Source of the DNA: Uliginosibacterium sp. 31-16
GTDB lineage: Bacteria; Pseudomonadota; Gammaproteobacteria; Burkholderiales; Rhodocyclaceae
Direction of reading: 5' to 3'
Length of the DNA: 64,000 nt
Assembly (NCBI RefSeq): GCF_030730865.1
Contig: NZ_JAVALZ010000002.1
Span: forward strand, 806,001 to 870,000
The notes below the pieces were generated by a model, which was not told the DNA's origin, did no database searches, and saw only the letters and a program-made list of their open reading frames with translations. The position numbers and the translations under genes are program-made. Below are positions 6,570-61,463 of this stretch, in pieces (the stretch's first letter is position 1; every line of letters starts with the position of its first letter).

Positions 6570-6648
6570 GCCTGAATAGCCGCGCCCTGCCTTGGTTTCA
6601 GGCATGGCAGCCTGAAGAAGTCCGCCACATGCGGCTCTTCAGGCGGCT
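6570..6648. repeat. Dispersed palindromic element, copy 1
   Basis: Outer arms GCCTGAATAGCCGC (6570-6583) and GCGGCTCTTCAGGC (6631-6644) are inverted copies, and a second CCTGAAGAAG start inside forms a shorter palindrome with the same right arm. It fills the space between two convergent stop codons (6562 and 6655). Related copies lie at 11398, 28186, 34598, 38228, 43131, 57436 and 61388. Confidence 0.75.
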
Positions 6649-6654
6649 ATAGTT

Positions 6655-8583
6655 TCAAGTCTTTCGTGCCGTCACCGCCGGGCCGGTTACCCCCGCTACG
6701 CCCAGTGCGGACAGGGTCTGCCACTCGGCTTCGCTTGCCACGCGCTCGGCAATGACCTGGATTTCGAGGCTGCGCGCCACATCGACCACGGCTTTGACGA
6801 AGCGCTGATTGCCTTCGTTGCTCTCGATCTCGGCCACGAAAGCGCCATCGAGCTTCAGATAATCCACGCTCAGGGCATGCAGGCGAGGCATGGCCGAGAA
6901 GTGCCGGCCGAAGTGCTCGATCCCCAGCTTGCAGCCATGCTGGCTGAGCAGCGCCGCGAAATCGGTCAATGCATCCAGTCCGCCGGTTTCGCCAATTCCA
7001 CGCTCGGACAGCTCTACCCACAGGCGTGGCGCACGCCGCCCGGCGCTGCCCAGGATGGCTCGCACCCCAGGCAGGAAGGAGGGGTCGGCCAGCGACAGCG
7101 GCGACAGATTCACCGCAATATCGCCCGACTCCTCATCCAGATGGATCATGGCCGACTCAAGCGTCAGCAGATCCAGCCGTGCCGTCATGCCCAGCCGACT
7201 GGCCACCGGCATGAACTGACCGGCCGTGATCGGCACACCCTCCACGTCGAGCATGCGCAGCATGGCTTCGCGATGCAACAGCGCACCGTCCACGCGCAGC
7301 ACGGGGAAGAAGGCCAGACGGAATGCGCGCGTAGCCAGCGCCATCTCGATGCGGCTGCGCCACTCGTCGCTGCGCGCCGCCGTGTGCGGCGTTTCTCCGG
7401 CGTTCCCGGCCAGCGGCGGCTGGGCAGATTCGGCCTGCATCAGGCAGGCATCCAGGCGCAGCAACACGCCGCCCAGATCTTCGCCACGCCGATAGAGTGT
7501 CCAGCCAATCGCGGCGACCGGCTCACGATCCACATATTCCTGGCGGTACAAGCGGTCAAAGCCTTCGAGCAGCTGCTGGCACAGCCGCTGGGTTCCAGCG
7601 CCATCCAGTTCGGGCAGCAGGACACCGAACTCGGCCCCGTTCAGACGGCCAATGGTGGCCGATTCATCGTGCTGGCGCACCACGTCACCCAGCAGACTGG
7701 CACAGGCCTGGATCAGGATGTCGGTGCGCTCGCGGCCGATACGCCGGTTCACGCCAGCCAGGTCGAGCACCCGCGCCACCACCAGCGCGCCGCCGGGCGC
7801 AGCCTGCTCGTCGTGCAGCGCCTCGCGCAGGCTGCCCATGAACAGGCTGCGGTTGGGCATGCGGGTCAGCGCATCACGGTTGGCATCATTGCGCAGTTGC
7901 TCGATGCGCGAGGCCTGCTCGGCAAACATGGCCTGCACCCGCCCGACCATCGAATTCATCGCTCGCCCGACCACACGCAGCTCGGGCACATCCGGCTCCG
8001 GCAGCATGACGAAACGGCGAAATCCGATCGCCACCGCCTGCTCGACAATCGCACGCAGGGGTTTCTGGGTCCAGCGCATCAGCAGCGCCACGACCACGCA
8101 CAGCAACAGACCGATGCCGCCCTGGGTCAGCGCCAGCTTGAGTGTGCCGCTCCACAATTCGGCGTAGGCATAGCGGGCGCTTGCCCGCACCTCGACCTTG
8201 CCGGCCTGACGCCAGCCATCCGACACCAGCGCCTCGCCCGGTGCTGCATCCAGCGGAACCAGGGCCACAAACCAGACCGGCGCAGAGGAAGCGGGCGCAG
8301 TCGTCAGACGCTCTACCTGCAGCGTGCCCTCCACATCGAAATACCGGATCGACTCGAAATGCCCGGAGTCGAACAGCGCGCTGACCAGCAGTTCGCGCAT
8401 CGCCGCATCCTTGTGCTGCTGCGACATCGACAAAGCCAGCGAGGTCGCACTGTCACTGGCCTGGGCGAACAGTTGCTGGGCCAGATAATTGCGCGCGGTC
8501 AGCACGCTGAGGGCGAAGCTGCCGGACAAGGCCAGCAGCATTGCCACCAGCACACTCAGCCACAAACGGGTAAGCAGGGACAT
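6655..8583 (-). CDS. lapD: LapD-like c-di-GMP receptor with degenerate GGDEF and EAL domains
   Basis: Inner-membrane protein of 642 aa. Start chosen for GGAGGA 7 bases upstream. Order: TM1 (residues 5-30), periplasmic LapD/MoxY-type domain to about 150, TM2 near 155-175, HAMP linker, GGDEF domain (about 235-390), EAL domain (about 410-640). The GGDEF signature reads NGAEF and the EAL signature reads EAM, both off consensus. This is as expected for LapD, which binds c-di-GMP without making or cleaving it and then sequesters the protease LapG. The lapG-like gene is 43 bases upstream in the same operon, which strengthens the call. No LapA-type adhesin gene is in the window. Confidence 0.88.
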   Translation of the reverse strand: MSLLTRLWLSVLVAMLLALSGSFALSVLTARNYLAQQLFAQASDSATSLALSMSQQHKDAAMRELLVSALFDSGHFESIRYFDVEGTLQVERLTTAPASSAPVWFVALVPLDAAPGEALVSDGWRQAGKVEVRASARYAYAELWSGTLKLALTQGGIGLLLCVVVALLMRWTQKPLRAIVEQAVAIGFRRFVMLPEPDVPELRVVGRAMNSMVGRVQAMFAEQASRIEQLRNDANRDALTRMPNRSLFMGSLREALHDEQAAPGGALVVARVLDLAGVNRRIGRERTDILIQACASLLGDVVRQHDESATIGRLNGAEFGVLLPELDGAGTQRLCQQLLEGFDRLYRQEYVDREPVAAIGWTLYRRGEDLGGVLLRLDACLMQAESAQPPLAGNAGETPHTAARSDEWRSRIEMALATRAFRLAFFPVLRVDGALLHREAMLRMLDVEGVPITAGQFMPVASRLGMTARLDLLTLESAMIHLDEESGDIAVNLSPLSLADPSFLPGVRAILGSAGRRAPRLWVELSERGIGETGGLDALTDFAALLSQHGCKLGIEHFGRHFSAMPRLHALSVDYLKLDGAFVAEIESNEGNQRFVKAVVDVARSLEIQVIAERVASEAEWQTLSALGVAGVTGPAVTARKT

Positions 8584-8626
8584 GGTTCAATCCTCCCGGC
8601 GCATGTGCGCCATTGGGCAGAGATGT

Positions 8627-9310
8627 TCAAGGCTCATAACCTTCTTCTTTCATTTTTCGCATCAGCTCGCGCCATAACGAGAGCTGGTTGACCGAACCTG
8701 AGGCGGTCGCAGCGCCCTGCTTCCAGATCCCGTCGCTGTTGAAGCTGAACACCGGGGCCAGATCGGGCCGCCGTGAAGCCGGCAGGATGCTGGTGGTCAG
8801 ATTGTCGAGCACCAGTGGCTCGGCCCCCGGCGTGGCATAGTACCCCAGCACCATGTGGGGCTCCGTCACCCCGCTGCCGGGCACGCCAATCGTGGCGACC
8901 ACGTAGATCCAGCGCAGCTTGCTGCGATCCACCCCCAGCTCGATCAGGCTGAAATACTTGGCGATCACAAAATCCTCGCAATCGCCTGCTCCCTGCCCCA
9001 GAGATTCCAGCGGCGTGGCCCAGTAATCCACCTGCCGCCACACGCTGGCGTCAGGCAGGAATCGCATGTGCCGGCCAAAGAATTCGTTCACCCGTCGCAG
9101 CTTCTCGGCTTCCGGCAGCGCAGCGGTCTGCGCCAGCATTTCGCGCCAGTCGCGGAACCCCTGCGCCCCGCGGTCGCCAAAGCGTGCGGTGATGGCCTGC
9201 AACATGCGTTCCGGGGCCACGGCTGCGCCCGCCAGCGAGACCCCCAACAACAGCATCAGGGCCACTGAACGCCAGCGCATATCCTTGATCTTCCAGAGAC
9301 GAAACCTCAC
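8627..9310 (-). CDS. lapG: LapG-like periplasmic transglutaminase-like cysteine protease (BTLCP)
   Basis: A secreted cysteine protease that in Pseudomonas cleaves the N-terminus of a biofilm adhesin when LapD releases it. Catalytic triad residues are visible: Cys111 in GAGDCEDFVIAKY, His152 in EPHMVLGYY and Asp169 in LVLDNL. The coordinates use a GTG start at 9310. An ATG at 9280 (MRWRSVALMLL) would give a cleaner signal peptide and may be the true start; neither has a strong ribosome site. It is first in an operon with lapD and is divergent from a TolC-like gene 207 bases away, which resembles the lap locus logic of secretion plus controlled release. Confidence 0.88.
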   Translation of the reverse strand: MRFRLWKIKDMRWRSVALMLLLGVSLAGAAVAPERMLQAITARFGDRGAQGFRDWREMLAQTAALPEAEKLRRVNEFFGRHMRFLPDASVWRQVDYWATPLESLGQGAGDCEDFVIAKYFSLIELGVDRSKLRWIYVVATIGVPGSGVTEPHMVLGYYATPGAEPLVLDNLTTSILPASRRPDLAPVFSFNSDGIWKQGAATASGSVNQLSLWRELMRKMKEEGYEP

Positions 9311-9517
9311 ACGCGATCTCTTTCAGCCGGAAACCGTGAAATAGTTGTTTGCCAGCCCCATTCCGACACAATTCCCGACGTTTGACATAGGACAAAGCCA
9401 CGCTGCCAGAATAGAATTGATTCCAGTCCGGCCCCCTCGATAACTATCGGCACCAACAAGAACCACTGAACCCCTGCCCCGCACATATAAGGCAGGCCCG
9501 GAACAGGATTTCACCCT

Positions 9518-11311
9518 ATGCACGCATACAAGACGCTCGCTTTCTCCCTGGCTCTGATCGGCAGCAATCTGCACGCTGCGACGCTCAATGAAGTCACCGA
9601 ACGCGCCTTGGCCCGCAGTCCCGATGTCCAGCTTCGCCTGCACGAATACAACGCCTCCAGCAACGAACAGCAAGCCGCTCGCGGCGGCCTGCGTCCGCGT
9701 CTGGATCTGGAGGGCTATGCCGGTCGTGAGCGCTATGATCCGGCGCCCGGCAGCAGCAACTACTTCAACCACCCGGGCGCCGCCCTGCAGCTGCGCCAAT
9801 TGCTGTTCGATGGCGGCGCGACCCGCAACGACATCAAGCGTCTGGGCTTCGCCAAGGCCACGCGCTATTACGAGCTGCTGCAAACAGCCGACGACATTGC
9901 TTACGAATCAGCCCGCGCCTATCTGGACGTGCAACGCTATCGCCAGCAATCGGAGCTGGCCAAGGACAACTGGGCCATTCACAAAGAGTTGTACGATCAG
10001 ATCAGCACTCGCGTGCAAGCTGGTGTCGGCCGTCGCGTCGATTTGGAGCAGGCGGGAGGGCGTCTGGCCCTGGCCCAGTCCAACTGGCTCACGGACACCA
10101 GCAATCTGCATGACGTTGGCGCCCGCTTCGAGCGTATCGTCGGCGAGGCTCCGCCGGTCCTCGCCGAAGCGCCCGACCTGACCAAGCAGATGCCTGAAGA
10201 CAAGCAAGTGCTCACCGAAGCCCTGCGCAACAACCCCGGCTTCATGGCCGCAGTGTCCAATCTGCGCTCGGCCCGCGCCCAGACCGACGTGCGCCGCGCC
10301 GCCAATGCACCGACCGTTGAATTCCGCGCCTCCACTGGCGTCGAACGCAACCGTTCCGGCGTTGATGGCAATTACCAGAATGGTGTGGCCCAGATCGTCA
10401 TGAACTACAACCTGTATCGTGGCGGTGCCGACAGCGCCCGCATCCAGCAGGCCAAGGAGCTGTACAACGCAGCCATCGACGGGCGCGAGAAATCCTGTCG
10501 CGACATCCGTCAGACCACCACGATCGCGGTCAACAACGTGCGCAAACAGCGTGAGCAACTGCGCTATCTGAACCAGCACCTGATTTCCACCGAAAAAGCC
10601 CGCGACGCATACCGCCAGCAATTCGACATCGGCCAGCGCACCCTGCTTGATCTACTCGACACGGAAAACGAGCTGTTTCAGGCCCGCCGCGCTTACACCA
10701 ATGCCCAGTACGACCTGAAACAGGCCGAATATCAGGTGCTCGCAGTCACCCACCGCCTGCTGCCGGGTCTGGGGCTGGCTCCTGCCAGCGCCGCTACGCC
10801 GGATACCGACGAAGGCGAGCTGCAAGACACGGTGGCCCAGTGCAGTCCGGACATGCCGCCACCTGTCGAACTCGATCTGGCTGGCGCAATGGCCTCACGC
10901 CCGACGCTCAAACCTCCCGTGCCGGCACCGCAGGCTCCTGCAGCGGCCGCACCGACGCTGCCCCAGCAGTGTGAATTTGCCGCACATGACTGGGCGGCCG
11001 CCTGGTCTGCCAGGGATCTGAAGAAATACCTGGGCTACTACTCCGACAATTTCCAGCCTCTGACCCGTACAGACCGCGAAGACTGGCGCAGTTTCCGCGC
11101 CCAGCGCTTGGAAAAGGAGAACATTTCAGTCGAGCTGAAGAATCTGGAAATCAAACAACTGTCGGCGGATAGCTGCGAAGTGAATTTCAAGCAACGCTAT
11201 CGCTCGTCGGATTTCAAGGACGACATCACCAAGCGCCTCGTACTCAAACACGAAACGACGGGCTGGAAAATCATCCAGGAAATTGCACCGAAAAAATCCT
11301 CGGCCAGTTGA
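9518..11311 (+). CDS. TolC/LapE-like outer membrane efflux protein with C-terminal NTF2-like (Cds6-type) domain
   Basis: 597 aa with a signal peptide (LAFSLALIGSNLHA). Residues about 22-420 are a TolC-type outer membrane factor with two long helical repeats, for example VTERALARSPDVQL near the start and DIGQRTLLDLLDTENELFQA at the end of the second. A Pro/Ala-rich linker follows (about 425-485), then an extra domain of about 110 aa with WAAAWSARDLKKYLGYYSDNF and a closing GWKIIQE. That pattern is typical of NTF2-fold Cds6/SnoaL-like domains often joined to L,D-transpeptidases. The TolC part fits a type I secretion exit duct for an adhesin, given lapG and lapD next door. The role of the tail is unknown. 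Confidence 0.85.
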   Translation: MHAYKTLAFSLALIGSNLHAATLNEVTERALARSPDVQLRLHEYNASSNEQQAARGGLRPRLDLEGYAGRERYDPAPGSSNYFNHPGAALQLRQLLFDGGATRNDIKRLGFAKATRYYELLQTADDIAYESARAYLDVQRYRQQSELAKDNWAIHKELYDQISTRVQAGVGRRVDLEQAGGRLALAQSNWLTDTSNLHDVGARFERIVGEAPPVLAEAPDLTKQMPEDKQVLTEALRNNPGFMAAVSNLRSARAQTDVRRAANAPTVEFRASTGVERNRSGVDGNYQNGVAQIVMNYNLYRGGADSARIQQAKELYNAAIDGREKSCRDIRQTTTIAVNNVRKQREQLRYLNQHLISTEKARDAYRQQFDIGQRTLLDLLDTENELFQARRAYTNAQYDLKQAEYQVLAVTHRLLPGLGLAPASAATPDTDEGELQDTVAQCSPDMPPPVELDLAGAMASRPTLKPPVPAPQAPAAAAPTLPQQCEFAAHDWAAAWSARDLKKYLGYYSDNFQPLTRTDREDWRSFRAQRLEKENISVELKNLEIKQLSADSCEVNFKQRYRSSDFKDDITKRLVLKHETTGWKIIQEIAPKKSSAS

Positions 11312-11324
11312 TCGGCCAGACGGC

Positions 11325-11354
11325 AAAAAAGGCGCCCGCAGGCGCCTTTTTTGA
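11325..11354 (+). terminator. Intrinsic terminator of the TolC-like gene
   Basis: AAAAAAGGCGCC and GGCGCCTTTTTT form a perfect 12-bp stem around CGCA, 14 bases after the stop. It is symmetrical, so it could also serve transcripts from the other side. Confidence 0.88.
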
Positions 11355-11397
11355 TGGCAATAACAGCAGCAATCATCAGACCCGCGCCATGCCATGA

Positions 11398-11515
11398 CCT
11401 GAAGACCCGATTCCAGCGGGCCTCTTCAGGTACCCTGCCCGCTCAGGTACGCCGACCCTTGCTCTGCTGGAAGACCTGCTGAAGAGGCCCGCCACATGCG
11501 GCTCTCCGAACAGCC
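11398..11515. repeat. Dispersed palindromic element, copy 2
   Basis: Left block 11398-11430 begins CCTGAAGACCCG and closes CGGGCCTCTTCAGG, itself a palindrome. The right block (11478-11515) reads CTGAAGAGGCCCGCC then ATGCGGCTCT. The middle shares the segment ACCCTGCCCGCTCAG with copy 4. The element abuts the stop codon of the minus-strand gene at 11515. Confidence 0.75.
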
Positions 11516-13050: not shown

Positions 13051-13140
13051 GCTCAGACTCTCCCGGGGAATTTCGACCGGATTGTGCCACATCGAGTGCA
13101 GCGCAGCATTGCCGCCCAGGCAGACGGAGATGAAGCAGGG

Positions 13141-13176: not shown

Positions 13177-13189
13177 CAGCAGCTTCCGA

Positions 13190-15484: not shown

Positions 15485-15535
15485 TCTGATCTCAGCGCAG
15501 AATTCCTCCGCGCTGCGAGCAAACCCCAAACTGCA

Positions 15536-27354: not shown

Positions 27355-28191
27355 ATGCATCCGATTGCCTCTCTTGCCAGTTTTTGTTGTCTGTTTGCAG
27401 CCCTGTCGCTGGGCCTGTTCCCGCGCGCACGCCGCGCCAGCCTGGCATTCGGTGCGCTGATCATTCCGCTCGCCCTGAGCGCCGGTCTGCTGACGAACGT
27501 CGCGCTTGCATCCCTGCTGCCGGCCTTGCTGCTCTTGCGCCTGCGGCTCGCCACGGCACCGTGCCCGGACTGGGCGCGCCATCTCGGTCTGGGTCTGCTC
27601 GCCCTGTGGGCCCTGGCCGCCGCCCTGCACTGGCTCCCCGGCTTCACGCCTTATTTATGGACGCAAGACTTCGGCCGCGACAGCAGTCATGTTCTGCAGT
27701 GGCAACTCGACAAGGGCCTCGCCGCGCTGCTCCTGCTGTGGGTCTTGCCGGCTCCACCCAAGGCTTCGCCCTCCCCCGCGCGCTGGCTGGCCTTGCTGCC
27801 GGGCTGCGCACTTCTTCTAGTGCTGGCGCTACTGAGCGGACAGGCCCGCATCGATCCGCACTGGCTGCCGGGCGGCCTGATCTGGCTGGCCGGCAACCTC
27901 TTCCTCAGCGTATTTGCCGAAGAGGTTTTCTTTCGTGGCCTGCTCCAGCGTGGCCTGCAGCGGCTACTGGCGCCTCGCCCGCAAGCCTTCGCCATCGCCG
28001 TTGGCCTGAGCGCCCTGCTCTTCGGTCTGGTGCATCTGCCTTGGGGACTGCCCTTCGCCGCCATGGCCACCCTGGCCGGCATTTTCTACGGGCTGATGGC
28101 CGCTCGCGAAAATGCCTTGCCGCGTGCGATCTGCGCCCACTTTGCGCTTAACGCGCTGACGCTTACCCTGCTGCACAGCCCGCTGGCCTGA
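27355..28191 (+). CDS. CPBP family intramembrane protease
   Basis: 278 aa with about eight hydrophobic segments. The Abi/CPBP motifs are present: EEVFFRGLLQRG (motif 1, EExxxR), FGLVHLPWG (motif 2) and HFALN (motif 4 region). Members cleave CAAX-like or other membrane substrates; some protect against self bacteriocins. The ATG at 27355 lacks a strong ribosome site, so the exact start is uncertain. The stop codon TGA is the first part of a palindromic repeat copy. Confidence 0.85.
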   Translation: MHPIASLASFCCLFAALSLGLFPRARRASLAFGALIIPLALSAGLLTNVALASLLPALLLLRLRLATAPCPDWARHLGLGLLALWALAAALHWLPGFTPYLWTQDFGRDSSHVLQWQLDKGLAALLLLWVLPAPPKASPSPARWLALLPGCALLLVLALLSGQARIDPHWLPGGLIWLAGNLFLSVFAEEVFFRGLLQRGLQRLLAPRPQAFAIAVGLSALLFGLVHLPWGLPFAAMATLAGIFYGLMAARENALPRAICAHFALNALTLTLLHSPLA

Positions 28192-28303
28192 GAGCCGCAT
28201 CCAGCGGGCATCTCCGCCCACCCCATCCGCAGACCCTCCATGCGCAAGCTTCTCCAGACAGGCATCACGCAGGCCAAGTCTGCACGCGCCTCTTCAGGCA
28301 GCC
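28186..28303. repeat. Dispersed palindromic element, copy 3
   Basis: Arms GCCTGAGAGCCGC (28186-28198) and GCGCCTCTTCAGGC (28286-28299). The left arm includes the TGA stop of the CPBP gene. The next segment CATCCAGCGGGC is shared with copies 2, 4 and 8. The remaining bases up to the glycine riboswitch hold no gene. Confidence 0.72.
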
Positions 28304-28360
28304 ATCCAGGGTATTTTTCACTGCTTGAGTTCGCCGCCAAGGCAGGTTACATTCGCCGCT

Positions 28361-28541
28361 CGTTCGGGAGAGAGTCCGCTATCGCAAAACGACGCTGACC
28401 GCCGAAGGCGCAACCCCCCGGGAACGCTCAGGCAAAAGGACCGAACGAAAACGACAAATCTGGAGAGTGGTACCCATCGGGTACCCACCGAAGGGGCACG
28501 GAAAGCACGGCTTTCCAATCTCTCAGGTATCAAGGACAGAT
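28361..28541 (+). promoter_or_regulatory. Tandem glycine riboswitch
   Basis: Two aptamers in series. The first is closed by CGTTCGG / CCGAACG (28361-28367 with 28441-28447). The second is closed by ATCTG / CAGAT (28458-28462 with 28537-28541). Both have the GGAGAG..., GCCGAAGG or ACCGAAGGGG, and CTCAGG motifs that define the glycine aptamer. It sits directly upstream of gcvT, the most common target, and would be expected to switch on glycine cleavage when glycine is high. Confidence 0.95.
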
Positions 28542-28543
28542 GG

Positions 28544-28576
28544 GGGCTGAAGCACACAGTGCTCTCAGCCCTTTTT
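28544..28576 (+). terminator. Riboswitch expression-platform terminator
   Basis: GGGCTGAAGCAC and GTGCTCTCAGCCC form a stem around ACA with one bulged base, followed by TTTTT. It begins two bases after the second aptamer closing stem. How glycine binding would disrupt it cannot be read directly, because overlap with that stem is slight. Confidence 0.75.
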
Positions 28577-30126: not shown

Positions 30127-30140
30127 TGTCCCACAACTGG

Positions 30141-30211
30141 CGTCATCCCGGCGAAGGCCGGGATCCAGCGACTTTTAAAACCCCTGGATTCCGGCCTTCG
30201 CCGGAATGACG
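30141..30211. repeat. Palindromic repeat of the CGTCATTCCGGCGAAGGCCGG type
   Basis: Arms at 30141-30168 and 30184-30211 start CGTCATCCCGGCGAAG and end CTTCGCCGGAATGACG with a 15-base centre. Repeats of this look are widespread between genes in proteobacteria. It follows gcvH by 14 bases and may also terminate its transcript, although no T tract is seen. Confidence 0.8.
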
Positions 30212-30221
30212 GCAAAACCCC

Positions 30222-30932: not shown

Positions 30933-30976
30933 CCACGTCCTCAACGACTTCAGCTCCTTGGCATCATGGCCAAAAC

Positions 30977-31062
30977 GTAGGGCGCAATCGAAGCGAAGCG
31001 CATTGCGCCGCATGTAATCACTCCAATCCGGCGCAATGCCCTTCGGGCGATTGACGCCCTAC
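30977..31062. repeat. Palindromic GTAGGGCGCAAT-type repeat
   Basis: Left arm 30977-31010 (GTAGGGCGCAAT...CATTGCGCCG) and right arm 31029-31062 (CGGCGCAATG...GCCCTAC) are inverted copies with a few mismatches and an 18-base centre. This type of repeat occurs between genes in many bacteria. It ends 27 bases before gcvP. Confidence 0.78.
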
Positions 31063-31089
31063 AAACCCAAACGCACCACAGAGAAAACC

Positions 31090-34460: not shown

Positions 34461-34505
34461 TCTGGCGCGGACGACGATCAATGCGTAATCGGGCCGGGGA
34501 GTTCA

Positions 34506-34557
34506 CGAAACTGAGTCACAAAGCTGAGTCACAAAGCCGAGTTACAAAACTGAGTCA
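34506..34557 (+). repeat. Four tandem 13-bp direct repeats
   Basis: Units CGAAACTGAGTCA, CAAAGCTGAGTCA, CAAAGCCGAGTTA and CAAAACTGAGTCA lie head to tail with no spacer; a degenerate fifth follows. They start 46 bases after the DUF5710-like gene in a 254-base gap without genes. Confidence 0.85.
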
Positions 34558-34597
34558 CGGCGCAAAGTTACGAAACAGCGTTTCGATCTGCTCGCAA

Positions 34598-34712
34598 AGC
34601 CGCATGCAGCCTTGCTCTGCAGCAAGGCATGCTGAAGAGCCTTTCCAGGCAGGGGTATAAGAACAGCCCGCCCGAAGACGCCCGTCACAGGCGGCTTCGC
34701 AGGCAGGCCTGT
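34598..34712. repeat. Dispersed palindromic element, copy 6 (divergent)
   Basis: Contains GCAAGGCATGCTGAAGAGCC, which echoes copies 4 and 5, and ends with CAGGCGGCTTCGCAGGCAGG. Arms are poorer than in the other copies. It ends two bases before the stop codon of the convergent gene at 34715. Confidence 0.5.
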
Positions 34713-36742: not shown

Positions 36743-38233
36743 ATGCTGAAGTCGGGGCTGCGCAGCAAGATCATTTTCAGTGCCGCCGTGGTGATTGTCG
36801 TCACCACTGGCATGATTGCGTTGGCAGCCACCCTGTTTTTCGTTTCGCAACAGGTCAATACCCTGCAGTCACGCTCCAGCGCCGTGGCACGCGGCCTGAC
36901 GGTTCAGCTCGAACGCATCACCAATCTGGGTATCGCGATCGAGGATATTGTCGGCTTCGACGAACAGTGCTCGGAGTCCGTGCGCAGCTACCCCGGCATG
37001 AGCTACACCCAGGTGGTCAGGACGGATGGCACGATCCTCTTCGACAGCCGCCCTCAGCACGCCGGGCACAAGCTTGAGTCGCCGATCCTGATGAAAGCCA
37101 TGCAGCAAGGCGAGACTGCACCGGCCCGCCCCATCGACGGCGAATATGTGGTGCTGGAACCTGTTCTGAATGCCAGCAGCAGCCGGGTGGCCAGCGTGAT
37201 CGTGGCCTTCCCGCGCAGCCTGGTTGATGACGCCGTGGTGCACATGCTGCTGCTGGGTGGCGGAGTGGGCGCCTGCGTCGGCGCCCTGGGCTTGCTGGTG
37301 CTGTTTGCCTTCCTGCGCCATCAGGTCATCAAACCGATTTCCGCCCTGGTACGCACGGTCACCCATGTCAGGGATCACCCCGGCGATTATTCAGTACGCG
37401 TCCCGCCTCAGCAGGATGACGAAATCGGTCTGCTGGTCGACGGTTTCAATCAGTTGCTGGGCAAAATGGAAGAGCGCGAGCGCGAGCTGATCGAAGCACG
37501 CGACACGTCAGACAAAGCCAACCGCATGAAGTCGGACTTCCTCGCGGCGATGAGCCACGACCTGCGCACGCCCATGCACGCCATCCTTTCCATGAACGAG
37601 TTGCTGCGCGGCACGTCGCTGACGGAGAAGCAGCAACGCTACTCGCTCAACGTGCACAAGGCCGGACAGTGGCTGCTGGGTATCATCAATGACATCCTGG
37701 CCTTCGCCAAGATCGAATCCGGCAAGCTGGATCTGCTCAACGCCGAATTCGATCTGCGCCAGCTGGTTGAAGACATCATCACCTTGCAGGAAGACTTTGC
37801 CCACAGCAAGAAGCTGTCCCTGACCTGGCAGGTCGCCGAGGAGATTCCGGAACGCCTGATCGGTGACGGTCCGCGGCTGATGCAGATGCTGACCAACCTG
37901 ATCAGCAACGCGATCAAATTTACCGAACAGGGCAGCGTGCATCTGGATGTGATGCCGGCCCACCAGCACATCACCTTCTCGGTCACCGATACCGGTATCG
38001 GCATTGACCCGGCCAAGCTCTCGCTGCTGTTTGAACCCTTCGTGCAGGTAGCCAGTGCCGATGCCCAGCGCCGCAGCGGCACGGGCCTGGGCCTGTCCAT
38101 CGTCAAGCAGCTGGCCGAAGCCATGGGCGGCGAAGTCGGCGTGGACAGCTCGCTGCAGCACGGCGCCACTTTCTGGTTCACCGCGCGCCTACGCCCTGTC
38201 GAGCAGAACAGTCCCGCGACAGAAGCCGCCTGA
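36743..38233 (+). CDS. Membrane sensor histidine kinase paired with a periplasmic binding protein
   Basis: 496 aa. TM1 at about residues 9-33, a periplasmic sensor of about 130 aa, TM2 near 166-190, HAMP (about 190-245), HisKA with phospho-acceptor His272 in AAMSHDLRTPMHAIL, and HATPase_c with NLISNAIKFTE, DTGIGIDPAKL and GTGLGLSIVKQLAEAMGG. No receiver domain or response regulator gene is nearby, so it is an orphan kinase. The 4-base gap from the binding-protein gene argues that the two act together. Its TGA stop is embedded in palindromic copy 4. Confidence 0.92.
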   Translation: MLKSGLRSKIIFSAAVVIVVTTGMIALAATLFFVSQQVNTLQSRSSAVARGLTVQLERITNLGIAIEDIVGFDEQCSESVRSYPGMSYTQVVRTDGTILFDSRPQHAGHKLESPILMKAMQQGETAPARPIDGEYVVLEPVLNASSSRVASVIVAFPRSLVDDAVVHMLLLGGGVGACVGALGLLVLFAFLRHQVIKPISALVRTVTHVRDHPGDYSVRVPPQQDDEIGLLVDGFNQLLGKMEERERELIEARDTSDKANRMKSDFLAAMSHDLRTPMHAILSMNELLRGTSLTEKQQRYSLNVHKAGQWLLGIINDILAFAKIESGKLDLLNAEFDLRQLVEDIITLQEDFAHSKKLSLTWQVAEEIPERLIGDGPRLMQMLTNLISNAIKFTEQGSVHLDVMPAHQHITFSVTDTGIGIDPAKLSLLFEPFVQVASADAQRRSGTGLGLSIVKQLAEAMGGEVGVDSSLQHGATFWFTARLRPVEQNSPATEAA

Positions 38234-38342
38234 AGAACCGCATCTGGCGGGCTTCTCCACCCACCCTGCCCGCTCAGAAAGAACCAGCAAGCCCCTTCAG
38301 CATGGCATGCCGAAGAAGCCCGCCAGATGCGGCTCTTCAGCC
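38228..38342. repeat. Dispersed palindromic element, copy 4 (best preserved)
   Basis: Arms 38228-38258 and 38312-38342 are 31 bases each and differ at only a few positions (GCCTGAAGAACCGCATCTGG... facing ...CCAGATGCGGCTCTTCAGCC). The left arm contains the kinase stop TGA; the right arm ends 4 bases before the stop of the convergent gene. The centre shares ACCCTGCCCGCTCAG with copy 2. Confidence 0.85.
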
Positions 38343-51701: not shown

Positions 51702-51718
51702 GTTTGAGTACAGTCCCT

Positions 51719-52738
51719 TTACGGTCGAGAACCGGTCGGAAATGGCCAGCCCGCACGCGGGTTCAGTGAGGATTTGATCCCTGGCGTTGCCGACGTGGAC
51801 GGAACAGGTTTCGGCACGGACTGAGCAGGCTCAGGCTCCGTTGTAGGCTCTGCCGCTTCGGCAGGTTTGGCTTCAACCGGAGCCCCAGCGGCGGGCGCAA
51901 CTACTTTCACTGCTTTTTTAGCCACGGTTTTCTTGGGAGCGGCCTTCACAGGTGCGGCCTTCGCTGCAGGCTTGGCCTCAGCCTTTTTTGCTGCAGGTTT
52001 GGCGGCCGCCTTGGCAGGGGCTGCCTTCTTTACTGCAGGTTTCGCCGCAGCTTTAGGGGCAGCTTTCTTTACCGCGGGCTTGGCCGCGGTTTTTTGGGCA
52101 GCCGGTTTGGCCACTGCCTTAGGAGCAGCCTTCTTCACCGCAGGTTTGGCTGCAGCTTTCTTGGCGACCGGCTTGGCAGCAGCCTTGGGAGCGGCCTTTT
52201 TCACCGCAGGTTTGGCTGCAGCTTTCTTGGCAACGGGTTTGGCCACAGCTTTCTTGGCGACAGCCTTGGGGGCAGCTTTCTTCACCGCAGGTTTGGCTGC
52301 AGCTTTCTTGGCGACCGGTTTGGCCACAGCTTTCTTGGCGACAGCCTTGGGAGCAGCTTTCTTCACCGCAGGTTTGGCTGCAGCTTTCTTGGCGACCGGT
52401 TTGGCCACAGCTTTCTTGGCAGCGGCCTTGGGAGCGGCCTTTTTCACCGCAGGTTTGGCTGCAGCTTTCTTGGCGACCGGCTTGGCGGCAGCCTTGGGAG
52501 CGGCCTTCTTAACGGCAGGTTTGGCTGTCGCTTTCTTGGCGACCGGCTTGGCGGCAGCCTTGGCCGGAGCAGCTTTCTTCACTGCAGGTTTGGCTGCAGC
52601 TTTAGGTGCTGCCTTTTTGACTGCTGGCTTAGCCACCGCCTTGGCAGGCGCAGCTTTCTTCGCAGCCGGCTTGGCAGCGACTTTTTTTACAGCGGGTTTG
52701 GCAGCGGCCTTCTTCGCTGCGGGTTTTGCAGTTGCCAT
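51719..52738 (-). CDS. Histone H1-like Lys/Ala/Pro-rich DNA-binding protein
   Basis: 339 aa from ATG 52738 with GGAGGTG upstream. Residues 1-290 are repeats of AAKPAVKKAAPK and AKPVAKKA units, like the C-terminal tail of eukaryotic H1 and the bacterial HctB/AlgP-type proteins; these bind DNA nonspecifically by charge. The last 50 residues are different: acidic and Pro/Ser-rich (AEPTTEPEPAQSVPKPVPSTS). Repeat number in such genes is unstable, so length will vary between strains. Transcribed alone, closed by a strong terminator. Confidence 0.9.
   Translation of the reverse strand: MATAKPAAKKAAAKPAVKKVAAKPAAKKAAPAKAVAKPAVKKAAPKAAAKPAVKKAAPAKAAAKPVAKKATAKPAVKKAAPKAAAKPVAKKAAAKPAVKKAAPKAAAKKAVAKPVAKKAAAKPAVKKAAPKAVAKKAVAKPVAKKAAAKPAVKKAAPKAVAKKAVAKPVAKKAAAKPAVKKAAPKAAAKPVAKKAAAKPAVKKAAPKAVAKPAAQKTAAKPAVKKAAPKAAAKPAVKKAAPAKAAAKPAAKKAEAKPAAKAAPVKAAPKKTVAKKAVKVVAPAAGAPVEAKPAEAAEPTTEPEPAQSVPKPVPSTSATPGIKSSLNPRAGWPFPTGSRP
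52136..52525 (-). repeat. Tandem DNA repeats of 66-81 bp inside the histone-like gene
   Basis: The phrase CACCGCAGGTTTGGCTGCAG recurs at 52136, 52202, 52283, 52364 and 52445, giving one 66-bp and three 81-bp steps. The 81-bp step encodes a 27-residue unit beginning KAVAKPVAKKAAAK. All steps are multiples of three, so copy changes keep the frame. Confidence 0.9.
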
Positions 52739-53444
52739 CTTCACACCTCCTTGTAAGCACCGATCAGGTTGGACACAACACACACGCACCGTCCGCCGTC
52801 GCCGGTCGAATGGTGTAAAGCCGCGCGATAACGCGGCGTTTTGAAAAACTTCGGATTGCAGGAAAAGAACATGTCGACATCCGTGCAGGCGACATGTGCA
52901 AATCGAGACGACAGATCATGCGACGAGGTGGTCTCGATGCCTGATCGCAGGAAAATTTTGACGGGGAAAACCGCAGGCAGGAAGAAGAGACAGTTTCACC
53001 CTGCATGAATCGCCGAGCGGCGACAGGCCTGAAGGTTGGGACGCTGGACAAATGTTTGCTGGACACCGGACTCAGTTCGCTTTCGAATGCGCTGACACTG
53101 ATTACCGTTTAATCCAAAACAGCTAACGAATCAAGATTTTTTTACATGTCCATTTCATTGCCTCTTCAGAAAAATGACAAAAGCAATGGCAATAAATTAA
53201 TGAACATGCTCCGAGATCCGCGCCAATAAAAGACCTTCACAGCCAGGCTTGATCCAGAGAGAACACGACAGTGCACAAACACGTTTGTCGGAAATTTCAT
53301 CACAAACAGCGAAAGCATCGTCTTCGCCCGCAGAGGGCTCCGGACGAAACACACTATATCTAGTTGAAAACACTCCCCGAAAGACTAGCCGCAGTAGCAC
53401 TGTTTAAGCTCAACTGACACCTCTGTCTGCTGCATGGCACAGAC
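52739..53444. other. Long intergenic region with an AT-rich half
   Basis: About 700 bases without a convincing gene. 52820-52842 holds a hairpin (GCCGCG / CGCGGC then TTTT) in the leader of the histone-like gene. From about 53090 to 53390 the sequence is clearly lower in GC than the genome (for example TTTTTTTACATG near 53138 and CACTATATCTAGTTGAAAAC near 53352). It may contain the promoter of the histone-like gene and ampD operon end signals; I cannot assign boxes with confidence. Confidence 0.4.
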
Positions 53445-56964: not shown

Positions 56965-57209
56965 GACGTACGCCCCGCAGCCCGGGCGTGTTCGGGTGAG
57001 CAGAAGAACTCGCCGCCGCTGATCAGGCCTTCGCTCTCCGGCACCAGCACGCCACAGTGGAAGCACTCGCGCATCGTTTCAGGGGAAACGTCACGACCTC
57101 CATCTTCCCCCCGCGAAGAGGACTGTCCGTCGACATCCTGACGACGCCACAGACGACGCGCATACCAGATCGCCACCAACCCCAACAGGAACAGAAACAG
57201 CTTCTGCAT
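56961..57209 (-). CDS. PP0621 family protein
   Basis: 82 aa. One N-terminal membrane helix (LFLFLLGLVAIWYA), a charged linker, then a small Cys/His cluster (MRECFHCGVLVPESEG, FFCSPEHARAAG) likely to bind zinc. This family, named after P. putida PP0621, commonly precedes pilS as here, with a 4-base overlap. Function unknown. Confidence 0.88.
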   Translation of the reverse strand: MQKLFLFLLGLVAIWYARRLWRRQDVDGQSSSRGEDGGRDVSPETMRECFHCGVLVPESEGLISGGEFFCSPEHARAAGRTS

Positions 57210-57435
57210 ACCGGCTCCATGCCATTCAAGCCTCGCAGTTTATCCCGGCAGGCGGTCTGATCAAATGCCGGCAGCGCCGTGAACGCAATAATCCTTCCGA
57301 ATCCATTCCTGTCTTCGGCCCACACACTTCGACCAGGGGGCCGCCACGTGCCTGGCAGACAAAATCACTCCGTCCCATGCGCAAGGATGAACCATGTCAT
57401 CCTCAGCACGGACCCGCCATCCTGCAGGGTGCCCC

Positions 57436-57553
57436 GCTGAAGAGCCGCGCCCGGCGGTCTTTGCAGAGCATGCCTCGTGGTAATACAGGCGCACTGGGCA
57501 CTTGCGGCAGGGGTGCCGCGTCAGCCCCTCTGCACGCGGCTCTTCAGGCAGGC
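57436..57553. repeat. Dispersed palindromic element, copy 7
   Basis: Arms GCTGAAGAGCCGCG (57436-57449) and CGCGGCTCTTCAGGC (57535-57549). The centre differs from the other copies, having its own short palindromes. Located in the 490-base gap between PP0621 and the EF-hand gene; no gene is seen in that gap. Confidence 0.78.
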
Positions 57554-57622
57554 GTCACTAACTACCGTGTCACTCAAGCGGAAGCTCGAGACGGGACTGC
57601 TCCGGCCGAAGAACATATTGAC

Positions 57623-57668
57623 GCCGAACCTCGCCGGTGGACGGCAACATCCACCGGCGAGGTTCGGC
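57623..57668 (-). terminator. Perfect 19-bp hairpin downstream of the EF-hand gene
   Basis: GCCGAACCTCGCCGGTGGA and its exact inverse are separated by 8 bases. It begins 30 bases after the stop of the gene at 57699 but lacks a T tract, so it may be a factor-independent terminator substitute or an mRNA end-protecting stem. Confidence 0.55.
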
Positions 57669-57698
57669 ATGTAAATGCAGGCAGGGAATGAAGCCCGC

Positions 57699-58355
57699 TC
57701 AAGCGACGACCGACAACGAACTGCTCTGGTTTGCGCTGTTCGTGCCAAACGCCCCGTAAGACTGGGCCAGCTGCATGACCTTGAGCATGACAGCGAACTC
57801 GTTTTCGGTACTCGTGGTGCCGGTACTGCTCGCCCCGCTCGATGACGTGCTGCTGTTGGCCTGATCGTAGGCCATGGCTTCCTGCATGCTGACCTTGCCA
57901 TTGCCATCGGTATCCGCTTCATCGAAATTCGCCACGATGTTCGAGATCAGGCTGGAGCGCTTGCTGTCCGTGCTGCCGATTTCGTCGAGCTGGCTGCTCA
58001 GCTCATCCTGAGTAAAACCTTCGTCATCAGCGGGTGGCGGCGGAGGCATGCCGCCTGCGCCGCCCGGCTCCCCCATCGCACTCATGGCACTGCTCATGCG
58101 CATGCCGTCGAGCTGGCTGTCGATCTGGTCAGCCAGCTTCTGCAGACTGCTCGACAACTCGCTTTCCGTGATCTTGCCGTCCTGGTCACTATCCAGACTG
58201 GAAAACACCTCATCAGCACTGCTTGCGCTGCTGCTCGCTGAAATCTTGTCAAAAGCGCTCTGCAGGTCCGTCTTCTCGATGTAGCCCTGGCTCTTGGTAT
58301 CCAGTCTGGCAAACAGGGTGCTGGCCAGGCTGCTGATGCTGCTGATACTGCTCAT
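57699..58355 (-). CDS. EF-hand protein resembling XopAW-type calcium-binding proteins
   Basis: 218 aa from ATG 58355 with GAGGAG upstream. No signal peptide. The N-terminus is Ser/Ile-rich (MSSISSISSLASTLFARLD), as in proteins annotated XopAW-family. EF-hand loops: DTKSQGYIEKTD (degenerate), DSDQDGKITESE and DTDGNGKVSMQE, plus a degenerate one near DDEGFTQDE. A Pro/Gly stretch and a Ser/Thr-rich tail follow. XopAW was described as a Xanthomonas type III effector, but homologues occur widely in bacteria with no such system; no secretion genes are here, so an effector role is not implied. Confidence 0.8.
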   Translation of the reverse strand: MSSISSISSLASTLFARLDTKSQGYIEKTDLQSAFDKISASSSASSADEVFSSLDSDQDGKITESELSSSLQKLADQIDSQLDGMRMSSAMSAMGEPGGAGGMPPPPPADDEGFTQDELSSQLDEIGSTDSKRSSLISNIVANFDEADTDGNGKVSMQEAMAYDQANSSTSSSGASSTGTTSTENEFAVMLKVMQLAQSYGAFGTNSANQSSSLSVVA

Positions 58356-58703
58356 GATGGACTCCTCTTCTTGCGTGAAAAAAGTACTGCCGACCTCAGG
58401 TCGGCCACGACTTCCGCACCTGTACACCACTCATGCATATCGCTGGCGCAAGGCAGCACACTCTCTGCAAGATATCGGCCCACGTGGCCCTGGGCTGGGC
58501 CCTAATGGCGTTAAAGCACTTAAAAAATCCTCAAGAAATCCACTTCACAGCCTGTTTTCCAGCTTGACGAAAAGCCTTCGAATGCACAAGCCGGCAAAAT
58601 ATTCCGGCCGGCACGACCGTCATGGCCGGCTGGCCATCTCCCAGATCGCCCACCATCCGGCACTCTGGACAAATCAGCGCCTCTCCAGCGGCAAGCTTTG
58701 CCG
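58356..58703. other. Intergenic region without a recognised gene
   Basis: About 350 bases between the EF-hand gene start and the terminator of the Spy-like gene. Likely holds the EF-hand gene promoter. The open frames across it have no ribosome sites and are antisense or run into the terminator. Confidence 0.4.
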
Positions 58704-58735
58704 CAAAAAAAGCGCCCGATCGCAAAACCGGGCGC
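58704..58735 (-). terminator. Intrinsic terminator of the Spy-like gene
   Basis: On the minus strand GCGCCCG pairs with CGGGCGC around a 10-base loop and is followed by seven to eight Ts. Confidence 0.88.
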
Positions 58736-58772
58736 ATAAAGGACAAGCTTCAGGACTCCCTCGTCGGGAGAA

Positions 58773-59318
58773 TTAACGAGGGCTGATCTTGTCTTCAGGG
58801 ACAGCAGGAGCAAATGGGGGGCGCCACGCCCGACCGTTCTCTTCCACATGGCGACGCTGCTCGGGGGTAAGCAGCGCGCGAATCCGGGCTTGCGCCGTCG
58901 CATGCAGCAAAACGATTTCGCCATGTGCCTTGCCTGCCGCCTCTGCCAAAGCCCTGGCTCGCGCTGCATCAAAGCTCGCAGCCAGCGACAGGCTGCGCAA
59001 CGCCTCCTCCGCATGCCGCGACTTCTTCATGGCGTCGCGAAGCGCCGGAGCCTGGGCATGGAGGATCAGGAAAACTTCATCCTGCTGCGCCTCGCTCAAA
59101 TCCAGCTCGCGCAACTCCGGTGGCAAAAACGGACCGGGCATCGGCTCACGGAAAGGTAGCGGCGGCATCCCTTCCGGCCCGCTACGGGGAACTCCTCGAC
59201 CATGCGGCACAGGTGCCGCACCGGCGGTGGGTACAGGGGAAATATTCTGTGCTGCAGCGAGCAGCGGCAGGCATGCAAAGACCAGCAACAAGTGCCGGGC
59301 GGAATGGAATCGGGACAT
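58773..59318 (-). CDS. Spy/CpxP-like periplasmic protein
   Basis: 181 aa from ATG 59318 with GGAGG upstream. Signal peptide (ARHLLLVFACLPLLAAAQ). A Pro-rich segment (about 25-75) precedes the helical LTxxQ-type core: LDLSEAQQDEVFLILHAQAPALRD near residue 75 and LTPEQRRHVEENG near 155. These are the two repeats of the Spy/CpxP family, periplasmic chaperones and envelope-stress sensors. Divergent from a CpxRA-like pair, with CpxR-like boxes in the intergenic space. Confidence 0.85.
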   Translation of the reverse strand: MSRFHSARHLLLVFACLPLLAAAQNISPVPTAGAAPVPHGRGVPRSGPEGMPPLPFREPMPGPFLPPELRELDLSEAQQDEVFLILHAQAPALRDAMKKSRHAEEALRSLSLAASFDAARARALAEAAGKAHGEIVLLHATAQARIRALLTPEQRRHVEENGRAWRPPFAPAVPEDKISPR

Positions 59319-59408
59319 GCTGAAAACCTCCGGAAGACGCGGTTTTGCGGGCTTGCAAGACGTACCGGCATTCTTCGGCCACAGCCTGTAAAACGCACTC
59401 AAGTCACC

Positions 59409-59445
59409 GTAAAAGACGATCAAACGGCGGGTAAAAAACGTTAAA
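59409..59445 (+). promoter_or_regulatory. CpxR-like binding sites between spy and cpxRA homologues
   Basis: GTAAA-N5-TTAAA at 59431-59445 fits the CpxR box GTAAA-N5-GTAAA in 9 of 10 positions. A weaker GTAAA-N5-ATCAA is at 59409-59423, 22 bases upstream, on the same face of the helix. Confidence 0.55.
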
Positions 59446-59519
59446 TCTGCTCAATCGGAACGCTGAAATGCCCGGCAGCATGCCTATCATGCGAACAGGA
59501 CAAATCAGGAGTGGCACAC

Positions 59520-60206
59520 ATGGCCAGCAAAGTATTACTGGTGGACGACGACACCGAACTGGTCGAGATGATGGCCGACTACCTTGGCCGCGAAGGCTTC
59601 GAGGTCGAAACAGCACATGACGGCGAACAAGGTCTGATCCGTGCCCTGAGCGGCGAGTTCTCGATTGCCGTACTGGATGTGATGATGCCGCAGATGAGTG
59701 GCATCGAGGTTCTCAACCAGATCCGCAAACGCAGCCGCATGCCGGTACTGATGCTCACCGCGCGCGGCGACGACATCGACCGTATCGTCGGTCTCGAACA
59801 GGGCGCCGACGACTACGTACCCAAGCCCTGCACTGCACGCGAAATTTCGGCCCGGATCCGCGCCATCCTGCGTCGCTCCGGCGGGCTGGAAGAAAACACC
59901 AGTCAGCCGGTCAATGCCGGCGGCCTGTCAATGTGGCCGGAACAACGTCGCGCCGAATGGCAAGGCCAGCCGCTGGAACTGACCAGCACCGAATTCAACC
60001 TGCTTGAAGTACTGGCCCGCAATGCCGGGCGCACGGTCAGCAAGGCCGAGCTTTCGGAACAGGGGCTGGGCCGCCCGCTGCAGAAATTCGACCGCAGCAT
60101 CGAAGTGCATCTGTCCAAAATCCGCGAGAAACTCGGCCTGCTCGCCGATGGCCGCTCCAGCATCCAGACGATCTTTCGTCAGGGCTATCAATTCATCAAG
60201 GCTTAA
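59520..60206 (+). CDS. OmpR-family response regulator, CpxR-like
   Basis: 228 aa from ATG 59520, with AGGAG 8 bases upstream. Receiver domain with phospho-acceptor Asp53 (AVLDVMMPQMSG) and the LTARGDDIDRIVGLEQGADDYVPKP signature; winged-helix output with LTSTEFNLLEVLARNAGRTVSKAELSEQGLGR near residue 155, which is especially close to CpxR. Followed 8 bases later by its kinase. Confidence 0.9.
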   Translation: MASKVLLVDDDTELVEMMADYLGREGFEVETAHDGEQGLIRALSGEFSIAVLDVMMPQMSGIEVLNQIRKRSRMPVLMLTARGDDIDRIVGLEQGADDYVPKPCTAREISARIRAILRRSGGLEENTSQPVNAGGLSMWPEQRRAEWQGQPLELTSTEFNLLEVLARNAGRTVSKAELSEQGLGRPLQKFDRSIEVHLSKIREKLGLLADGRSSIQTIFRQGYQFIKA

Positions 60207-60214
60207 GGTCAGAC

Positions 60215-61387
60215 ATGGGTCGTCTGTTCTGGAAGATTTTCGCCGTCATCCTTGTCACCCAGCTGGTCAGCACCGGAGTCGTCGGAACCCTGCTGTGGCT
60301 GAATGGGCCGCAGCGCGAATTCCGGCCACCGCCCGATGCGGCCTGGGCCCGACCTGGTCCACCAGGCCCGGGCGGGACGAGCGCAGCAAGTGTGCCGGGG
60401 GCGCCGCACACCGAGTTTCAGGAGCGGCGCTTTCCGCCTCCGCCTGGCGGTGCAGGGCTCTTGCCCGGCCCGCGTGGCTTCCCCTGGCTGCCGGTCATCG
60501 TCGGCGGTCTGGCCAGCCTGCTCTTCGCCGGCCTGCTGGCCCGCTACCTGTCGCGCCCGATCATGGCGCTGCGGCGTGCCTTCGCCGCAGTTGCCAAAGG
60601 GAACTTCAACGTCCGGCCGAGCACTGAAATCGGCTCGCGCCGCGACGAACTGGCTGAGTTGAGTGTGGATTTTGAACATACCGCCAGCCAGCTCAAGAAC
60701 CTGATGGATAGCCAGCGTCGCCTGCTGCACGACGTGTCGCACGAAGTCCGCTCGCCTCTGGCGCGCATGCAACTGGCCATCGATCTTGCCCGCCAGCAAC
60801 CCGAAAAAGCCGAATCCAGCATGCAGCGCATCGAACGCGAGTCCGGCCGCATCGACCGCCTGGTCGAAGAGCTGCTGACCCTCTCGCGGCTGGAGGCACG
60901 TTCCTGCGGCGCGCTGGACGAAGAGGTCGACATGCTCGATCTGGTCGAAGAGGTCGTCGAAGATGCACGTTTTGAAGCCAGCGCCACCTTGCGCAAGGTC
61001 GAGTTCTCGGCCAACGGCGCAGCACAGGTCAAAGGGCGTGCCGAGCTGTTGCAACGCGCCGTCGAGAATGTCGTGCGCAATGCGCTGCGCCACACCTTCG
61101 AAGGCACCACGGTGCAAGTCAGCCTGTATACCAGCGGAGCCTGGCTGAGCATTCGCGTCGAAGACGACGGTCCCGGTCTGCCGGATGCTGCACTGGGCGT
61201 CATCTTCGAGCCCTTCGTGCGCTTTCGTGAAGATCGTGGCAACGACGGCTACGGCCTCGGCCTGGCGATCACCCGTCACACCATCGAAGCCCATGGCGGC
61301 AGCGTCAGCGCGACCAACCGTGATCAGGGTGGCCTGTGCATCGAAATGCGCCTGCCATCCCGGCATCCGCTGAAAAGCGGCTACTGA
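60215..61387 (+). CDS. Sensor histidine kinase, CpxA-like
   Basis: 390 aa. TM1 about residues 5-28, a short Pro/Gly-rich periplasmic loop of about 60 residues (PPGPGG, PPPPGGAG-like runs), TM2 near 88-110, HAMP, HisKA with His176 in LLHDVSHEVRSPLARMQLA and HATPase with VVRNALRHTFEG, DDGPGLPDAALG and GYGLGLAITRHTIEAHGG. The CpxA-type SHExRSPLxRxQ box supports the family call. The usual folded PAS-like sensor domain of CpxA is replaced by the Pro-rich loop. The stop abuts palindromic copy 5. Confidence 0.9.
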   Translation: MGRLFWKIFAVILVTQLVSTGVVGTLLWLNGPQREFRPPPDAAWARPGPPGPGGTSAASVPGAPHTEFQERRFPPPPGGAGLLPGPRGFPWLPVIVGGLASLLFAGLLARYLSRPIMALRRAFAAVAKGNFNVRPSTEIGSRRDELAELSVDFEHTASQLKNLMDSQRRLLHDVSHEVRSPLARMQLAIDLARQQPEKAESSMQRIERESGRIDRLVEELLTLSRLEARSCGALDEEVDMLDLVEEVVEDARFEASATLRKVEFSANGAAQVKGRAELLQRAVENVVRNALRHTFEGTTVQVSLYTSGAWLSIRVEDDGPGLPDAALGVIFEPFVRFREDRGNDGYGLGLAITRHTIEAHGGSVSATNRDQGGLCIEMRLPSRHPLKSGY

Positions 61388-61463
61388 CGGACTTCTTCAG
61401 CGCCCACCGCCACACAGCCGCGCACAGCAAGGCTCTTCAGCCGGCCTGCTCGCAGAGCAAGGC
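61388..61463. repeat. Dispersed palindromic element, copy 5 (partial)
   Basis: Contains GACTTCTTCAG near the start and AGCAAGGCTCTTCAGCCGG near the end, matching arms of copies 1, 4 and 6, but without a perfect long stem. It follows the kinase stop directly. Confidence 0.5.

What the first reader, a model, noticed from the sequence alone, without database searches (positions are those of the whole stretch)
6570..61463. A family of at least eight palindromic elements with CCTGAAGAGCCGC ends
Seen directly: related elements, mostly 70-120 bp, at 6570, 11398, 28186, 34598, 38228, 43131, 57436 and 61388. Their arms resemble GCCTGAAGAGCCGCATCCAGCGGGC and its inverse, with a variable centre; some centres share ACCCTGCCCGCTCAG. 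Eight in 64 kb is high for a REP/MITE family. Inference: a non-autonomous element moved by a RAYT-type or other transposase encoded elsewhere, or a genome-specific transcription end signal.
Basis: partly seen in the sequence, partly recalled or inferred. Interest (0 to 1): 0.72.

Follow-up and report, generated by a model that had tools for sequence, protein, structure and literature searches.

The report
Old modular palindromic repeats after genes
This bacterium carries several hundred old, scattered, palindrome-like DNA repeats just after the ends of genes, built from one to three 40-base blocks; they are a known sort of small dispersed repeat, but the way their letters are kept suggests that a protein reads them as double-stranded DNA rather than as hairpins.

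Summary
A profile finds 283 elements in 1.664 Mb (43%) of the genome, none in the reversed control (E<1e-3), so about 660 by proportion. They have one, two or three 40-bp units (31, 71 or 111 bp: 185 of 213 with both ends). They occur in 98 of 182 convergent gene pairs. Copies are old: 137 full-length ones average 52% identity, best pair 84%. The family is not confined to this genome: 20 places (E up to 0.01) in the nearest sister genome, a few elsewhere in the genus. Three of four sister copies testable here share the site with a copy in this genome; other sites are empty in relatives. So it is a dispersed non-autonomous palindromic repeat, expanded or better kept in this lineage. A RAYT partner is not supported, nor an intrinsic terminator. 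Unexpectedly, the arms within a copy do not covary, although positions are very unequally conserved. That points to selection on double-stranded half-sites (CYGNAGA...TCTNCRG), probably for an unknown DNA-binding protein.

The parts
833..903 (.). two-unit element (71 bp) inside the 3' end of the called gene 94-927
6572..6642 (.). two-unit element (71 bp) between convergent genes 5894-6562(+) and 6655-8583(-, LapD-like)
11399..11509 (.). three-unit element (111 bp) between convergent genes 9518-11311(+, TolC family) and the minus-strand gene ending at 11515
28187..28297 (.). three-unit element; the TGA at its start is the stop codon of the gene ending at 28191; upstream of the glycine riboswitch and gcvT; no element at this site in U. 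aquaticum
34592..34702 (.). three-unit element between convergent called genes (the left one weak), next to a 13-bp tandem repeat
38230..38340 (.). three-unit element, best in the window (E 5e-25); its CTGA is the stop codon of the histidine-kinase-like gene ending at 38233
57437..57547 (.). three-unit element, about 150 bp downstream of the minus-strand gene ending at 57699
61370..61480 (.). three-unit element overlapping the end of the called gene 60215-61387, before a tRNA gene at 61572-61653

Best explanation
An old family of non-autonomous palindromic intergenic repeats made of one to three 40-bp modules. Shown: each module is 31 bp (roughly CYGNAGASCCGC...TCTNCRG or its inverse) followed by a 9-bp spacer; copies were made and dispersed in the past, mostly to places just downstream of genes and above all between convergent genes; at one inspected site the element lies between a stop codon and a terminator-like stem shared with a relative; three insertions are shared with the sister genome at the same site, one of them with one module fewer there, while other sites are empty there. 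Shown: positions are unequally conserved and length is kept, yet the two arms of a copy do not covary. Inferred: the spreading enzyme is unknown and probably lost or inactive; retained copies are held by selection on double-stranded half-sites, most likely as a phased binding platform for a DNA-binding protein such as a nucleoid protein or gyrase; module number changes by recombination between modules.
For: Genome-wide excess; quantised length, 137+41+7 of 213 with both ends; element-limited similarity between some copies; empty sites; three sites shared with G005; position heterogeneity in 63 copies chosen by end words only, consensus frequency 0.33-0.97, chi2 611, df 43; no covariation: 137 copies fold like 8-column mosaics (z -0.08), covariation score below the shuffled mean (431 and 493 of 500 shuffles at least as high), no column pair above z 3.03 in 78 copies; fewer differences at conserved than at free positions between orthologous copies (9/40 against 13/23, p 0.012; 8/36 against 5/9, p 0.09) and in five related dispersed pairs (15/180 against 61/165).
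Against: No binding protein, transposase or target-site duplication was found. The two closest-lying pairs, about 1 kb apart, differ almost evenly at conserved and free positions (11/72 against 14/66), as neutral decay would give. One column pair between neighbouring units covaries (24-48, z 3.9), and the number of pairs with changes on both sides is slightly above its shuffled mean (25 against 23.4; 42 against 39.9). 70 of 283 elements lacked two recognisable ends and were left out of the length count. The profile favours conserved copies, and some hits inside genes are probably chance. Gene calls are my own.
Confidence: 0.55

Rival explanations
1. An RNA element: transcribed hairpins in 3' untranslated regions that stop transcription or protect or cleave the mRNA, as proposed for REP and ERIC.
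For: Position after stop codons and between convergent genes; elements fold well as RNA (mean -50.8 against -40.1 kcal/mol for mononucleotide shuffles) and pair far better in register than slid by 1-3 columns (61% against 35-45% of cells); co-directional gene ends with an element have fewer terminator-like sites (13 of 108 against 87 of 412); the literature argues from the same position for REPs (PMC3733652, passages).
Against: No compensatory signal for the structures as a whole in 62, 137 or 230 sequences, local pairing even slightly below independence; no T tract; at convergent ends terminator-like sites are as frequent with as without an element (49 of 175, 46 of 188).
Confidence: 0.2
2. 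Plain fossils of an extinct MITE, decaying without function; the apparent conservation is ascertainment.
For: Old copies, no partner enzyme, no near-identical pairs among 137; the two local pairs differ evenly; few copies in sister species.
Against: Interior positions not used to choose copies range from 0.33 to 0.97 in consensus frequency; 6 of 213 lengths are one base off the quantised values although copies differ at about half of their positions; orthologous copies keep the conserved positions better.
Confidence: 0.2
3. A REP/BIME family moved by a RAYT (Y1 transposase).
For: Two RAYT genes in the genome, each with one element downstream; the second was noticed only on re-checking, which is why this confidence is 0.07 rather than 0.05.
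Against: No GTAG tag; neither RAYT gene lies between two inverted elements; the first RAYT has orthologues at the same gltB-like neighbour without an element (L056-L058), and its alignment with three relatives begins where the element ends; no selection for pairing.
Confidence: 0.07

Closest known systems
Tagged REPs/BIMEs with RAYTs (PMC3733652 abstract and passages; PMC2817692 abstract)
   Same: High copy, palindromic, mostly intergenic, between convergent and co-directional genes, can supply stop codons
   Different: Up to 111 bp and modular instead of 20-40 bp, no GTAG tag, no RAYT flanked by two copies, no selection for pairing found
ERIC/IRU (127 bp) and other small MITE-like repeats (PMC2229807, passages)
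   Same: Size class, inverted ends, intergenic, non-autonomous (whole-element palindromy of ERIC is recalled)
   Different: No target duplication found here, 40-bp quantised modules; no sequence comparison with ERIC was run
Pneumococcal BOX repeats (PMC3049150, passages)
   Same: Modular; pneumococcal repeats are dense in one species, sparser in the nearest relative, and slow to insert now
   Different: Here all modules are versions of one 40-bp palindromic unit

Membership tests
REP/RAYT | GTAG (or CGTC) tag beside the palindrome | tested here: not met
   GTAG within 12 nt of 10 of 272 ends, 9.5 by shuffling; the CGTC tag was not tested
REP/RAYT | RAYT gene flanked by two inverted copies | tested here: not met
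   two RAYT genes inspected, each with one element downstream only
MITE | terminal inverted repeats | tested here: met
   inverted end words at fixed distances
MITE | insertion with empty sites in relatives | tested here: met
   boundaries not resolved to the base
MITE | no coding capacity | not tested
   open frames within elements were not examined
MITE | target-site duplication | tested here: inconclusive
   none significant in 136 elements (best z 1.9), but copies are old
MITE | autonomous partner with the same ends | tested here: inconclusive
   no unpaired inverted ends 0.2-4 kb apart among 26 unpaired ends of 224 in 43% of the genome
Intrinsic terminator | GC hairpin followed by a T tract | tested here: not met
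   five T in a row within 20 nt of 8 of 410 ends
Structured RNA family | compensatory base changes | tested here: not met
   one single column pair (24-48) stands out
Structured RNA family | match to an Rfam family | tested here: not met
   window at gathering thresholds: only two glycine riboswitch aptamers and a tRNA
DNA uptake sequence | near-invariant word, also common inside genes (recalled definition) | tested here: not met
   87 exact among 332 with up to 1 mismatch (exact rows counted); 42 of 283 elements inside called genes

The most novel reading that the evidence does not exclude
A genome-wide array of about 660 double-stranded, 40-bp-phased dyad sites, concentrated where converging transcription builds up torsion, that began as mobile repeats and now serves as binding platforms for gyrase or a lineage-specific nucleoid protein: palindromic repeats whose hairpin is not the working form.
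Probability: 0.2. Interest if true: 0.75.

Novelty: new variant of a known kind. Interest (0 to 1): 0.48.

Why it matters
Palindromic intergenic repeats are commonly explained by hairpins, in RNA or in single-stranded DNA. A family with hundreds of diverged copies allows a direct statistical test, and here the hairpin explanation gets no support while letter-by-letter conservation does. If a protein is found, it would tie the retention of repeats to chromosome organisation between convergent genes. The sites shared with the sister genome make turnover measurable.

Tried and rejected
RAYT linkage: not supported. Target-site duplications: none significant. Autonomous element with the same ends: none in 43% of the genome. 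A comparable word excess in 400 kb of U. aquaticum: none. 'Absent outside this genome' was my own first conclusion, from word counts (the draw did not include the sister species of the genus) and from profile searches of parts of relatives; one search overturned it. A note that copies are purely star-like was softened. Spacing along the chromosome: gap CV 0.69 and 0.84, not pursued. Dinucleotide preferences at positions 16-17 and 20-21 remain unexplained. Literature searches: no description of this family in their listings (one returned none); of the papers I saw abstracts or passages only.

Full report
The finding is real. In the window the word CCTGAAGAGCCGC occurs 13 times with up to 2 mismatches, against 3.63 expected. 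The window lies in an unnamed 3.9-Mb genome (G000), where the word with up to 1 mismatch occurs 332 times against 16 for the reversed word. Its genus in the collection holds Uliginosibacterium aquaticum (G002), U. gangwonense (G004) and Candidatus Dactylopiibacterium carminicum (G001); I named these by equal contig lengths. G005 is taken as the nearest sister from one protein only (gcvT, 92% against 75-83% in the others of the genus).

Anatomy. The distance between inverted end words is quantised. In 1.664 Mb of the genome (43%: C1:1-800000, C2:1-400000, C3:1-400000 and the window) a profile finds 283 elements at E below 1e-3 and none in the reversed sequence, or about 660 per genome by proportion. 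Of the 213 with both ends recognised (70 were left out), 137 are 111 bp, 41 are 71 bp and 7 are 31 bp; 6 are one base off these values and 22 have other lengths. So an element is one, two or three units of 31 bp separated by 9 bp. MAFFT aligned 62 of the 111-bp copies (both ends within 2 mismatches, not cut by a stretch end) without a gap.

Place. With gene calls of my own (hexamer model), 98 of 182 convergent gene pairs hold an element, 117 of 1104 co-directional and 25 of 180 divergent; 42 of 283 elements lie inside called genes, 16 of these being weak hits. At 22 of 246 adjacent gene ends the stop codon is the TGA of the element's CTGAAG. In the first 864 kb the median convergent gap was 160 bp with (51 pairs) and 61 bp without an element (45 pairs).

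Age and spread. The 137 full-length copies have mean pairwise identity 52% (55% in the better orientation); the best pair is 84%. A few pairs at 77-84% share similarity that stops near the element edges, with unrelated flanks, so copies were made. Word counts suggested that the family is absent elsewhere (40 other genomes, 398 other genomes of the order, at most 2 hits each against 76 here). A sequence-only model corrected this (150 candidates scored per genome, both strands listed). At E up to 0.01 it gave 37 rows at 20 places in G005, 7 rows at 4 places in U. aquaticum, 2 rows at one place in U. gangwonense, 3 rows at 2 places in G006, 2 rows at one place in G096, and none in G001, G003, G007, G008 and G012. 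Some weaker rows must be chance: the U. aquaticum hit in L315 lies in a stretch that aligns at 91% over 2.25 kb with this genome. L306 of G005 is a clean three-unit copy and L308 of U. gangwonense a clean single unit.

Shared and empty sites. Ten of the 20 G005 places were cut out as loci. Four of these have flanks that align with the part of this genome I hold (L314, L321, L325, L327). Three coincide with an element at the same site: C1:122747-122857, C3:204019-204089 and C3:289514-289624, the last with three units here and two in G005. For L325 the alignment breaks before the G005 copy, beside an element here that is about 400 bp away, so I do not count it. In the other direction I took two 20-kb stretches rich in elements. 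Of their 15 elements, five have both flanks in one G005 contig at close range and were fetched: none has a recognisable element in G005 (best E 0.3). By block coordinates the gaps here and there are 204/10, 244/66, 379/437, 201/124 and 355/305 bp. Two elements, one weak and one at E 4e-7, lie inside aligned blocks of nearly equal length and may be chance hits in genes; one has 2 kb extra in G005; for the rest synteny breaks. Against U. aquaticum five element-bearing gene pairs have gaps longer by 127 bp (median; one of the five is shorter) against 1 bp in 88 pairs without (Mann-Whitney p 0.026). At C1:545613 the element sits between the stop codon and a terminator-like stem that both species share.

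Hairpin or double strand. The consensus is a palindrome locally and as a whole, so hairpins were the expected explanation. It gets no support. Among 78 copies no column pair exceeds z 3.03 for pairing. Among 230 terminal modules the local hairpin pairs slightly less than independent columns would (7.17 against 7.36 pairs, z -3.0), pairing across the spacer is as expected (z 0.8), and one single pair (24-48) stands out at z 3.9. On alignment A1 the covariation score is 0.128 against 0.137 shuffled for local hairpins and 0.150 against 0.166 for the long hairpin, while pairs with a change on both sides are slightly above the shuffled mean (25 against 23.4, 42 against 39.9). Folding energies equal those of mosaics that keep 8-column blocks (z -0.08) or adjacent-base dependence (z -0.83); they are lower than those of 4-column (z -1.9) and single-column shuffles (z -5.6), which break local words; a control whose arms pair at 75% was easily detected. 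Yet in 63 copies chosen by the two end words alone, interior positions range from 0.33 to 0.97 in consensus frequency, and linkage between positions fades within about 6 bp. Orthologous copies differ less at conserved positions (9/40 against 13/23, p 0.012; 8/36 against 5/9, p 0.09), as do five related dispersed pairs (15/180 against 61/165; pairs chosen for high identity). Against this, the two pairs about 1 kb apart differ evenly (11/72 against 14/66). I conclude that letters, not pairing, are kept, which is what protein-read half-sites would show; the protein itself is inference.

Other mechanisms. RAYT: two genes, each with one element downstream, neither between two inverted elements; one is flanked by GTAGGGTGCG-type REPs. 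The other has orthologues with a gltB-like gene next to them and no element (L056-L058; four further orthologues were not resolved by that script; dgt and gltB are my reading of the translations, not a family search). GTAG tag and target duplication: none. Intrinsic terminator: not met; terminator-like sites are as frequent at convergent ends with as without an element (49 of 175, 46 of 188) but rarer at co-directional ends with an element (13 of 108 against 87 of 412), which a termination role could also explain. Rfam: no family at these places.

Known relatives. Position after genes and between convergent genes, and supply of stop codons, are described for tagged REPs (PMC3733652, abstract and passages), a paper that also mentions untagged REP-like families and asks whether they go with DNA- or RNA-binding proteins. 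Proliferation in one species with a sparser presence in the nearest relative is described for pneumococcal repeats (PMC3049150, passages). So the kind is known; the modular 40-bp build and the missing covariation make it a variant.

Noticed in passing
window 28355-28549: Two glycine riboswitch aptamers in tandem upstream of gcvT (Rfam RF00504).
   Followed up: no
window 30974-31063: A GTAG-type REP pair (GTAGGGCGCAATC...GACGCCCTAC) with matches in sister genomes; a different family from the one studied.
   Followed up: partly
window 30140-30215: Another inverted repeat (CATCCCGGCGAAGGCCGGGAT...) with many matches in G005 and G002.
   Followed up: no
window 34505-34582: Short 13-bp tandem repeat directly beside the element at 34592.
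   Followed up: no
window 51719-52789: Minus-strand gene with 27-bp-spaced repeats; by my reading a lysine/alanine-rich repeat protein, not tested.
   Followed up: no
L031:1174-1866 (G000:C1:798848-799537): A RAYT gene with orthologues in other genera beside a gltB-like gene, which looks like vertical inheritance of a supposedly mobile gene.
   Followed up: partly
L032:1357-1905 (G000:C2): Second RAYT gene, between GTAGGGTGCGCA-type REPs, with one element of the studied family further downstream.
   Followed up: partly
window 833-903: Element inside the called 3' end of gene 94-927, so it may encode the protein's C-terminus.
   Followed up: no
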